Source of the DNA: Beroe forskalii
Lineage: Eukaryota > Ctenophora > Nuda > Beroida > Beroidae
Direction of reading: 5' to 3'
NCBI GenBank assembly: GCA_011033025.1
Contig: WFMF01000510.1
Span: 55,125-119,124 of the forward strand
Length of the DNA: 64,000 bases
The notes below the pieces were generated by a model. It was not told the origin of the DNA. It saw only the letters and a program-made list of their open reading frames with translations, and did not search any database. Below are positions 5,728-63,871 of this stretch, piece by piece; position 1 is the stretch's first letter, and each line of letters starts with the position of its first letter. The position numbers and the translations under genes were made by a program.

Positions 5728-8700
5728 ATGGCTCGCAAAGTGAAGGCAGAAGCCCCTCGGCTCCCGGCTCACGATCTTCACGACGAGGAGAACCGGCTGA
5801 AGAAAGTGGGGGGTTACATCATCGGGAAGAGCATTGGGGAGGGGAGCTTTGCTAAAGTCAAGGAGGGTATCCACATACTCACGAACATGAGGGTGAGAGG
5901 CATATTCGCATTTTATTTGGTCATTTAGTTCGATTTATTATATTGAAAAAGTTATGGAATAACAAGCCATCTGTAACGAACCTTTAGTTTACCACTCTTG
6001 TATGAAGAAATAGTCCTTTTCAATTTTTTATAAAACACGGTTAGAAATTAAATTCAGAATATTTTTCAGAAAAACCCACAATTGGTGTTTTTCAGGTAGC
6101 AGTGAAGGTGATCAACAAGACCGAGCTGAAGGACACAGACTACATCATGAGGAACTTGCACCGGGAAGCGGATGTCCTCCGCAAGATAAGACACGAGAAC
6201 ATTGTGCAACTCTACGAGGTAATTGCCATCTTGGGATGCTTGCAGAGGAATGCTTCCATTTTGAAATGCTTCCATTTTATGATAATTCCATATTTTTGGG
6301 ATACTTCCATTATAAAATGCTTCCATTTTGAGATGCTTCCATTTTGAGATTCTTCCGATTATGAGATGCTTCCATTTTGAGATGCTTCCATTTTGGGGTG
6401 CATCCATTTTATGATAATTCCATATTTTTGGGATACTTCCATTATAAAATTCTTCCATTTAGGATTCTCATATTTTAAAATGCTTCCACTTTGGGATGCT
6501 TCCATTTGAAATGCTTCTATTTTAGGAATGCTTCCAATTTTTGGGACGTAAAACTCACAGACATTATAGAACCACTCAGCAGCTCAGCGGGGATATTAAT
6601 ATCCGTGAAAATTATGCCCGTGATACTATGCCCCCTGCCATGTAACTATGTAACCAGACAAGGCATTGTCTGGAAATCCACGCTAGTTAGCGAGTTATAA
6701 ATGGCATTGATTCAAAACCTTTGAATACATCGATTACAACTGCACTTTTATTTCTACAATAGGTATTGTATTTTATTGGGCATGAATAGTTCATCCAACA
6801 CAGTACATGTGAGCTCATCCATTCATTGACTCTGTTTGACGCACAGACACCAAACCTTATTGAATGTGTTCCACGCAACTCAGTGCTTCAGTGCTCTCTA
6901 CATTCTGTAACTAGAAAACGCAAGACGTGTTTCTTTGGAAGTTTAACTAGCATTTACTATTCGATGATTCCACATCATTTACTCCACTAAAATGGCTATA
7001 AGGGGTATAATTCCACGCCAATAACACCCAAAATACTGGAAGCAATATTATAATATTCTCATGTCAGGATGTAAATATACCGGCACTCGACTTGTCTACT
7101 TGTCTAGCCAGAGTTATTGAGCTAAATATTGGGTGAATTAAACCATAATATTCACATTTCCTATCATAGGTATCAAAACAAACTGGGCTTTTGGATCAAG
7201 GTATCCAAGTTCGAGATAGCCCATGCTCACATTGAAATTCAAAAATAATTCTGCTCAATTAATCTTCCACCACCCGAGCTGAGAATACCCAATAATATGT
7301 TGATGACACCGATCCTCATATGAAGTTCTGAGCGAGAAAACAAGATTTGAGATGTTGGACATTTCAATTGTAATTTGACCAAAAATTTGTCTAAAAAATG
7401 TAATTTGACCAAAAATTTCTAAATCCTGTCATAATTTAGATCTGACTGAATGTTTCTGCAGATGGATTTCATAATCTGACCTAGTCTCTTGCAGGCGATG
7501 TAGAAAAGTAGAAAACCACTACTACCTTCTCACATAGAAATAACACAGTTCCCGCAGATAAAAATGGGAAGAATCGAGCCGATCATTTCGAATTTTTGTT
7601 AAACATTTGAAGTAGGAGAATCGAGCGTGAATATTTATGTCTATGAATTTTTAGGTCCGTGAAACTAAAAGTCCGTGATAAGGTAACACAGTTCCCACTT
7701 CAGGTGATGGAGACAGAAAACCACTACTACCTAGTGCTGGAACTAGTCCGGGGCGGTGACCTGATGACACACATCTGCAACAACAAGCGACTCTCGGAGG
7801 CCGAGGCCCAGAAGTACACCCGGCAGATCATCTCGGCGGTGGACTACCTCCACGCGATAGGGGTGGTGCACAGAGACCTCAAGGTGGAGAACCTGCTGCT
7901 GGACGAGGACAACAACATCAAGATCATCGGTAGGCAAGCAAAGTTAAAGGCTTCATTGCTCATGACTTATTATTTTCTTAGGAAGCTTCATCAGTGCATC
8001 AAATGTTTAGAAATGTCATTATGTCCGAAATTTGATATGCAAGATTCTAAGATTTTGTCAATGTAGGGTCTCATTTAACTGATTTAGAGGCTCTTAAAAA
8101 GTCTCACGGGGTGGATTGAAAACCCACATAGACTTCCACCACAGATTTCGGGTTGAGCAACAACCTGGGGAAGAACGGGCTGCTCGGCACTCAATGTGGC
8201 TCACCAGCCTACGCTGCACCGGAGGTCTTCAGCAAAAACCCCTACGGTCCTTCAGTGGACATTTGGAGCATGTGAGTTGCAGATCTGTGGTAATGAGCAT
8301 ATTTTTTCAAGATTTCCATCAATCACGAGTCTAAATTCATTGATTTTAGAAGGTACAACATTATCGACATTAAAGCACCCATTGAAGGAATACAATCACC
8401 TGCTACTAAACTGACATTATTCGCTCTTTTCAGAGGCATCAACTTGTATGCCATGCTGACTGGTCAGTTGCCCTTTCACGTGGAACCAATCAACATTGCA
8501 GCACTCCATGAGAAAATAATGAAGGGGGCAAAGATCCCCAACCATCTCTCTCAAGGTACATTGTAAAAAGATCTATGGTAGTGAAACATAATCAAGGTAC
8601 ATTGGAATCAGACATAGAATATTGACACCTAATTAAGGTGACGATGCTGGTAGGGACAGTGTAGGAGGTCAGGAGGGTCAGTGGGGGGGGGGGTCAGCAA

Positions 8701-63767: not shown

Positions 63768-63871
63768 CTGAGGGCTCCCTCCTCGTGAGTAGATACGTGC
63801 ACACGCCACACCCCCCACTCCCACAGCAACACCCACCGGGCCTCCACCGAGGGCTCCTTCCTCGTGAGTTA
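63435..63871 (+). repeat. Six-copy 72-bp repeat in receptor tail
   Basis: Units start at 63435, 63507, 63579, 63651, 63723 and 63794. They encode a 24-residue repeat ([20 protein letters not shown] followed by LVSK/R) in frame with the kinase for four full units; a one-base loss in unit 5 leads to TAA at 63765. Each unit also holds CTCCCACAG (acceptor-like) and CTCGTGAGT (donor-like) flanking 37 bases, so it can be read as a protein repeat or as tandem mini-exons. Confidence 0.92.

What the first reader, a model, noticed from the sequence alone, without database searches (positions are those of the whole stretch)
7485..63871. Exon edges with their splice sites are tandemly duplicated in at least three neighbouring genes
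I count roughly eighteen splice junctions with one or more nearby tandem copies that include the splice site and a piece of its exon: kinase exon 3; TRIM exons 1 (both sides), 4, 5, 7, 8; receptor exons 2, 3, 4, 5, 9, 10, 12, 14, 16/17, 21; weaker at homeobox exon 1 and kinase exon 5. Copies of acceptors lie upstream and copies of donors downstream of the real exon, in all states from near-identical to decayed. Purely intronic arrays also exist (6228, 41690, 52100), but the boundary-spanning class dominates near exons. Ordinary slippage would not be expected to centre on splice junctions so often. Part of the effect may be selection, since duplications across a boundary are spliced out and tolerated. 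A process linked to transcription or splicing is an inference.
Basis: partly seen in the sequence, partly recalled or inferred. Interest (0 to 1): 0.92.

Follow-up and report, generated by a model that had tools for sequence, protein, structure and literature searches.

The report
Duplicated exon edges in a ctenophore
In a comb-jelly genome, short stretches that carry an exon's edge and its splice site are repeatedly copied in tandem into the neighbouring intron, a pattern described before in lancelets, and it offers a place to watch intron edges change.

Summary
In four window genes 16 of 80 splice junctions (15 events) have a local copy spanning the junction; each scores above every swapped junction context, and the chance rate, measured on swapped intron points, is 0.55%. 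The best copy lies upstream for all 10 acceptors and downstream for all 6 donors. Local duplications are also common inside introns (10-20% of control points), but 12 of 35 families in genes hit a junction against 2.3 expected from random placement. A second receptor copy (C714; 761 of 762 residues identical) carries different junction arrays, so they arise fast. Four other kinase loci add 4 of 25 junctions. Genome-wide motif counts point the same way but are weak.

This matches lancelet 'mirages' (Adh3, TnC, globins, PGBD5; PMC3087553, PMC3902484). The genome is a ctenophore, most likely Beroe forskalii; my full-text searches found no such report for ctenophores. Receptor exon 2 reads into the full exon 3 frame only through two upstream array acceptors (41857, 41866), so a mirage copy probably became the working site. 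Recurrent short tandem duplication, enriched at exon edges and tolerated because copies are spliced out, fits best. A link to transcription or splicing is untested.

The parts
7495..7732 (+). HUNK-like kinase exon 3: decayed copy of the exon start about 205 bp upstream of the real exon (7704)
   Evidence: family 7509-7732, score 18; the junction itself is not in the match
8546..8639 (+). HUNK-like kinase exon 5 donor (8555) and copy 41 bp downstream
   Evidence: score 13.5, maximum of other contexts 9.5
19662..19831 (+). TRIM exon 1 acceptor (19831) with upstream acceptor copies
   Evidence: score 15.5 at -143; family
19998..20408 (+). TRIM exon 1 donor array, 24-bp unit x about 8.5 (donor 20016); the first units are in frame without a stop
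   Evidence: TRF 20005-20206, score 30.5, ORF list
22807..23887 (+). TRIM exon 4 donor array, 30-bp unit x about 34 (donor 22839)
   Evidence: TRF 22823-23837, score 40
24232..24486 (+). TRIM exon 5 acceptor (24468) with upstream copies ending near 24247 and 24406
   Evidence: score 19.5 at -221; sequence
25254..25430 (+). TRIM exon 7: decayed copy of the exon start 150 bp upstream of the real exon (25399)
   Evidence: family score 21
25940..26017 (+). TRIM exon 8 acceptor (26013) with upstream copies, 20-22 bp units
   Evidence: score 15.5, TRF
41764..41914 (+). EGFR-like exon 3 acceptor array, 35-bp unit x 3.7; the acceptors that give the full exon 3 frame are 41857 and 41866 inside the array, not the innermost 41904
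   Evidence: score 21; frame test
43199..43478 (+). EGFR-like exon 4 acceptor array (43459)
   Evidence: score 22, TRF
48234..48480 (+). EGFR-like exon 5 acceptor (48460) and copy 112 bp upstream
   Evidence: score 20.5
51734..51817 (+). EGFR-like exon 6 acceptor (51807) and copy 49 bp upstream (AG lost in the copy)
   Evidence: score 18.5
55097..56850 (+). EGFR-like exon 10 acceptor array, 66-bp unit x about 26.7 (acceptor 56812); single copy in C714
   Evidence: TRF, score 40, 1704-bp difference
57241..57292 (+). EGFR-like exon 11 donor (57244) and copy 24 bp downstream; shared with C714
   Evidence: score 19.5, alignment
58624..58697 (+). EGFR-like exon 13 donor (58657) and copy 38 bp downstream; C714 has a different insertion here
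   Evidence: score 22, alignment
59510..59545 (+). EGFR-like exon 15 acceptor (59542) and copy 23 bp upstream, absent from C714; almost no exon sequence in the copy
   Evidence: score 9.5, maximum of other contexts 8.0; 23-bp difference
60438..60647 (+). EGFR-like intron 17: exon 17 end repeated at the 3' end of the intron; splice sites 4 nt away from those of C714
   Evidence: score 12; alignment; C714 frame
63301..63362 (+). EGFR-like exon 22 acceptor (63352) and copy 33 bp upstream
   Evidence: score 23
63431..63872 (+). 72-bp x 6 array at the 3' end of the last exon seen; unit carries a donor-like GTGAGT and most units are an open frame
   Evidence: TRF 63434-63869, ORF list

Best explanation
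These are 'mirages': short tandem duplications (mostly 20-110 bp units, some larger) of an exon edge together with its splice site. Shown: the copies lie in the intron beside the working site, some grew into arrays of up to about 34 units, others decayed, and two coding-intact copies of one gene carry arrays at different junctions. Inferred: each begins as one small tandem duplication by ordinary slippage or fill-in of a staggered break; unequal exchange or further slippage then enlarges or shrinks it; the copy is tolerated because it is spliced out. Also inferred: exon edges duplicate more often than intron interiors, for a reason unknown, and occasionally a copy is taken into use as a splice site, which moves the exon edge (EGFR-like exon 3, perhaps intron 17).
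For: 16 of 80 junctions with a spanning copy, 0.55% by chance on swapped intron points. 12 of 35 in-gene families at junctions against 2.3 expected, robust to threshold and to dropping doubtful gene models. C714 copy: exon 10 array absent, arrays at exon 12 and 14 acceptors, duplications at exon 19 donor and exon 21 acceptor, exon 11 donor pair shared. The 15 exons compared are 93.8-100% identical, without gaps, and translate without a stop, 761 of 762 residues the same. Four other kinase loci: 4 of 25 junctions. Of five stop-free acceptors for EGFR-like exon 3 in 41600-42000, only 41857 and 41866 give the whole conserved exon 3 protein. Lancelet precedent with the same anatomy.
Against: Duplications away from junctions are common: 10-20% of intron points and 23 of 35 families. 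A stricter first test showed no excess (9 of 80). Splice-motif enrichment in unannotated sequence is weak. The paired test falls to P 0.06 if the exon 15 case is counted as intronic and junction events are twice as visible; its event classes and unit lengths were set by hand. No transcripts were available, so which copies are used rests on reading frame alone.
Confidence: 0.72

Rival explanations
1. No targeting: short tandem duplications fall anywhere, those inside exons are purged, those across a boundary survive, and the junction ones stay recognisable longer because one copy is under coding constraint.
For: High general rate of local duplications (0.74 families per kb in 80 kb of sampled stretches; 10-20% of intron points). 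Weak motif enrichment in unannotated sequence. No excess in the strict test.
Against: Expected junction hits under uniform placement are 2.3, observed 12. Slower decay should give about twofold at most (reasoning, not measured), and recent copy-specific events are enriched too.
Confidence: 0.3
2. A process tied to transcription, splicing or exon chromatin (for example breaks or R-loops at exon edges) makes exon ends duplication hotspots.
For: Residual enrichment of recent events at junctions; G+C of duplicated units differs little from surroundings (+1.6%, standard error 1.1%, 146 families).
Against: No expression, break or chromatin data; the spanning copies hold intron sequence, so they were not made from spliced mRNA, though DNA and pre-mRNA cannot be told apart.
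Confidence: 0.25
3. Assembly artefact: arrays are mis-assembled or collapsed repeats.
For: The assembly has 1134 contigs, and C714 holds parts of the gene in an order that differs from the window.
Against: Copies range from identical to strongly decayed, differ between two gene copies, and occur in two-copy form.
Confidence: 0.05
4. Dispersed mobile elements (introner-like) inserted at splice sites.
For: MITE-like repeats are common in the window.
Against: Each unit contains its own gene's exon sequence, so units differ from junction to junction (alignments).
Confidence: 0.03

Closest known systems
Mirage minisatellites of lancelets (Adh3, TnC, globin BflGb6/BflGb9, PGBD5)
   Same: Tandem duplication of intron-exon boundaries, donor and acceptor sides, many copies with AG/GT, copy number differing between haplotypes, a suggested source of new introns (PMC3087553 passages; PMC3902484 passage).
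   Different: Here a ctenophore rather than a chordate, many junctions per gene, a count against random placement, and a frame-based case of a copy in use. The lancelet globin work had RT-PCR; none here.
Intron gain by tandem genomic duplication of AGGT (review PMC3443670)
   Same: Tandem duplication carrying splice signals (passages).
   Different: That model duplicates exonic sequence to make a new intron; here the edges of existing introns are duplicated. No clear intron gain shown.
Intron sliding and near intron pairs in Drosophila (PMC2891723)
   Same: Small shifts of intron position and duplication as causes (abstract and outline only).
   Different: Only one candidate here (intron 17, 4 nt), from two gene copies.

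Membership tests
Mirage (boundary-spanning minisatellite) | Tandem copies that span an exon-intron boundary | tested here: met
   16 of 80 junctions
Mirage (boundary-spanning minisatellite) | Both donor and acceptor boundaries affected | tested here: met
   10 of 41 acceptors and 6 of 39 donors
Mirage (boundary-spanning minisatellite) | Many copies keep AG or GT | tested here: met
   best-copy alignments; among the 16, the copy of 51807 has lost its AG and 60453/60647 pair a donor side with an acceptor side
Mirage (boundary-spanning minisatellite) | Copy number differs between haplotypes | tested here: inconclusive
   window and C714 differ and encode 761 of 762 identical residues, as alleles might; but exon 14 is found twice, TRIM exon 5 and receptor exon 4 once each, so a recent duplicate is not excluded
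Mirage (boundary-spanning minisatellite) | Regular splicing not disturbed | not testable with these tools
   no transcripts; reading frames support regular models for TRIM and most of the receptor
Mirage (boundary-spanning minisatellite) | Somatic length instability (reported at lancelet Adh3) | not testable with these tools
   no reads
Intron gain by tandem genomic duplication | New intron flanked by duplicated proto-splice sites, absent from a relative | tested here: not met
   the 13 introns compared are present in both receptor copies; other introns not tested

The most novel reading that the evidence does not exclude
Exon edges are duplication hotspots in a non-bilaterian animal: about one junction in five carries a local copy, arrays appear and vanish within the divergence of two near-identical gene copies, and copies are recruited so that exon edges and coding sequence move. 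Lancelets and ctenophores would then share an exon-edge mutation process that is either ancient or arose twice.
Probability: 0.35. Interest if true: 0.8.

Novelty: new member of a known kind. Interest (0 to 1): 0.58.

Why it matters
How introns move, grow and arise is an old question with few young examples. Here intermediate states (fresh pair, large array, decayed remnant, probably a recruited copy) lie side by side, and two copies of one gene that encode nearly the same protein differ at seven or eight junctions over about 9.5 kb. If exon ends really duplicate more often than intron interiors, that would be a mutation bias acting on gene structure, and it would extend lancelet 'mirages' to the other side of the animal tree. 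A full annotation with reads could test it directly.

Tried and rejected
Rejected: mobile insertions (units contain their own exon); chance similarity of splice consensus (other-junction contexts and swapped intron points; dinucleotide shuffles); G+C hotspot; copies made from spliced mRNA in general (they contain intron). I first took C714 for a plain second haplotype; two searches found TRIM exon 5 and receptor exon 4 only once, so I call it a second copy, allele or recent duplicate. The protein identity of 761 of 762 favours alleles. The first spanning test, 5 nt needed on both sides, gave 9 of 80 and no excess over intron points; it misses copies that diverge just past the splice dinucleotide, so I replaced it, after seeing that known copies were missed. 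A first probe test left out shifts under 40 bp (9 of 41 acceptors, 4 of 39 donors, 22 of 200 intron points at score 12) and was replaced. Frame preservation: the four largest junction arrays have units of 24, 30, 66 and 72 bp, but over the other families I saw no preference (by eye, not tested). Long DNA queries were swamped by MITEs. Motif percentiles in unannotated sequence are weak, and the pattern counts are inflated by large arrays.

Limits: 80 junctions from 4 genes, 29 from the second receptor copy, 25 from 4 kinase loci. In the second copy one donor (452 in L038) was set 1 nt off; it is counted as a miss. One of their 4 hits (L034) sits exactly at the threshold of 12. Exons were annotated by reading, position weights and frame, not by transcripts. 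The paired test used 7 junction and 4 intronic events with hand-set unit lengths; an eighth junction case (C714 exon 13 donor) and the intron 17 case were left out, and exon 15 was dropped or recounted. In one search, 148 of 151 families were scored (3 under 16 nt); of the tail cases one donor and three acceptor families lie in the C714 receptor copy, and one donor and one acceptor family in the kinase loci. Papers: passages of PMC3087553, PMC3902484, PMC6991124 (27, and sections 15 and 16 in 33, 34), PMC9949713, PMC3443670 and PMC2959044; outline and sections 7, 14, 23 of PMC11184263; outline and abstract of PMC2891723. No paper was read whole. The 2002 Adh3 work is recalled and seen only as a citation. 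That nothing is in print for ctenophores rests (a held library that lacks most subscription journals); of the hits I opened only PMC2959044, whose shown passages do not describe such repeats.

Full report
Source. The window is part of a 216-Mb animal assembly of 1134 contigs. The mitochondrial contig has 13,339 bp and 17.5% G+C; TGA reads as Trp, and AGR fits Arg at conserved COX1 places (my reading). ARAGORN (bacterial settings) found no tRNA in its first 10,000 bases, and Rfam no family at gathering threshold in the whole contig. Beroe forskalii mitogenomes are 13,357, 13,339 and 13,338 bp, 17.3% G+C, without ATP6/ATP8 or found tRNAs, with an unidentified frame after ND5 (PMC6991124, sections 15 and 16). 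A glutamate receptor from the same assembly has ML032222a as its best solved relative (that this is Mnemiopsis leidyi is recalled). B. ovata, by contrast, has a 92-Mb assembly (PMC11184263). So this is a ctenophore, most likely B. forskalii or a close relative; this is inference.

Genes. I annotated a HUNK-like kinase (9 exons), a TRIM gene (8 exons, in frame throughout), a homeobox gene (chain not in frame, uncertain) and an EGFR-like receptor (21 exons seen). The names HUNK, TRIM and EGFR rest on my reading of the proteins; Pfam gives kinase, homeodomain, furin-like and receptor domain IV matches, and none for the TRIM exon tried. All 80 splice sites have GT or AG.

Are the copies real and beyond chance? 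Ungapped local repeats of score 15 or more, at most 1000 bp apart, number 423 in the window and 4, 0 and 1 in three block-wise dinucleotide shuffles. Junction-centred comparison: 16 of 80 junctions reach score 12, each above all other contexts of its kind, while swapped intron points reach it in 0.55%. The best copy is always on the intron side. Weaker and failed cases are in the observation check.

Are junctions special? Intron interiors also have copies: 19.5% of 1336 control points, 10.0% of the 1190 outside the three largest junction arrays; a strict test with 5 nt on both sides showed no junction excess. By families, 35 non-coding families lie in the genes and 12 hit a junction; random placement gives 2.27+-1.41 and at most 9 in 1000 shuffles. 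With doubtful gene models dropped, 600 shuffles each: 12 of 33 against 2.0 at score 15, 12 of 28 against 1.8 at 18, 8 of 16 against 1.3 at 22; requiring 4 intron bases, 10 of 33, 9 of 28 and 7 of 16 against 1.9, 1.8 and 1.2, the last reached in 0.17%. So there is roughly five- to sixfold enrichment in these genes. A conserved exon copy could double the time a duplication stays visible, which lowers but does not remove the excess.

A second copy. Receptor exon 14 occurs twice in the assembly, at 100% and 95%. Window 52785-60155 matches C714 on the minus strand near 245.5-253.6 kb, and 60153-62300 matches C714 on the plus strand from 197.2 kb, so an inversion or assembly join separates them. Homology starts inside exon 7. 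The 15 exons compared are 93.8-100% identical and free of gaps, and their translation matches in 761 of 762 residues without a stop. The junction arrays differ: the 66-bp exon 10 array is only in the window; arrays at exon 12 and 14 acceptors, a 41-bp duplication at the exon 19 donor and a 68-bp one at the exon 21 acceptor are only in C714; the exon 11 donor pair is shared; exon 13's donor has a different duplication in each. At score 12, 6 of 29 C714 junctions have a copy. Of 10-11 copy-specific tandem events, 6-7 are at junctions, expected 1.5-2.1 (P 0.00007 to 0.005; 0.0046 to 0.022 if six unexplained small indels count as intronic; 0.014 to 0.063 if junction events are twice as visible).

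Elsewhere in the genome. In four kinase loci, chosen as multi-exon hits, 4 of 25 junctions have spanning copies. In 183 kb without annotation, 148 duplication families show a donor motif in the top 5% in 14 cases and an acceptor in 10, where 7.4 are expected for each, known receptor and kinase cases included. Whole-genome counts of three GTAAGT in a row are 7500 against 4933 for the reversed motif; singles in the 234-kb sample are 152 and 150, or 120 and 150 without the TRIM array. For AGGTAAGT the counts are 322 against 50, with singles 11 and 4. These agree in direction only; large arrays dominate them.

Consequences. With receptor exon 2's donor (phase 1), acceptors between 41600 and 42000 that stay free of stops through exon 3 are 41822, 41831, 41857, 41866 and 41968. 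Only 41857 and 41866, inside the array, give the whole conserved exon 3 protein; the first two read another frame, 41968 drops its start, and the innermost 41904 meets a stop. A mirage copy thus seems to serve as the acceptor and to add 13 to 16 residues. In intron 17 the likely splice sites of window and C714 differ by 4 nt, and the window repeats the end of exon 17 at the 3' end of the intron.

What it is. The anatomy is that of lancelet mirages. Lancelets and ctenophores are far apart, and full-text searches found no ctenophore report. I file it as a new member of a known kind. The cause of the junction enrichment stays open.

Noticed in passing
G000:C1134 (L002, L003): Mitochondrial contig of 13,339 bp without recognised tRNAs, with unidentified frames after ND5; points to Beroe.
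   Followed up: yes
window 16702-17087, 37340-37569, 38107-38446: MITE-like repeats with many copies in the assembly (lists capped), mostly 80-99% identical.
   Followed up: no
window 52785 and 60141-60153 against C714: Receptor copy on C714 is split and inverted, and its homology begins inside exon 7: structural variant, duplicate or assembly join.
   Followed up: partly
window 52785-62074 against C714: The two receptor copies encode 761 of 762 identical residues although introns differ by 5-13% in aligned columns: very strong constraint with very diverged introns.
   Followed up: partly
window 544-3930 against L025 2246-6547: The stretch just upstream of the window holds an 86-92% identical copy of the window's first kilobases.
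   Followed up: no
window 19998-20408, 22807-23887, 55097-56850, 63431-63872: The four largest junction arrays have units of 24, 30, 66 and 72 bp, all multiples of three; smaller families show no such preference by eye.
   Followed up: no
window 60760-60771 and 61065-61076: The start of intron 18 resembles the start of exon 19; the three bases that differ from C714 there all match exon 19, as if patched from a spliced copy.
   Followed up: partly
window 27629-29089 (-): Transporter of the MFS type in one 487-aa open frame without introns, between intron-rich genes.
   Followed up: no
window 32613-32725 and 36063-36127: Tandem repeats inside long open frames of the homeobox gene (21- and 24-bp units).
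   Followed up: no
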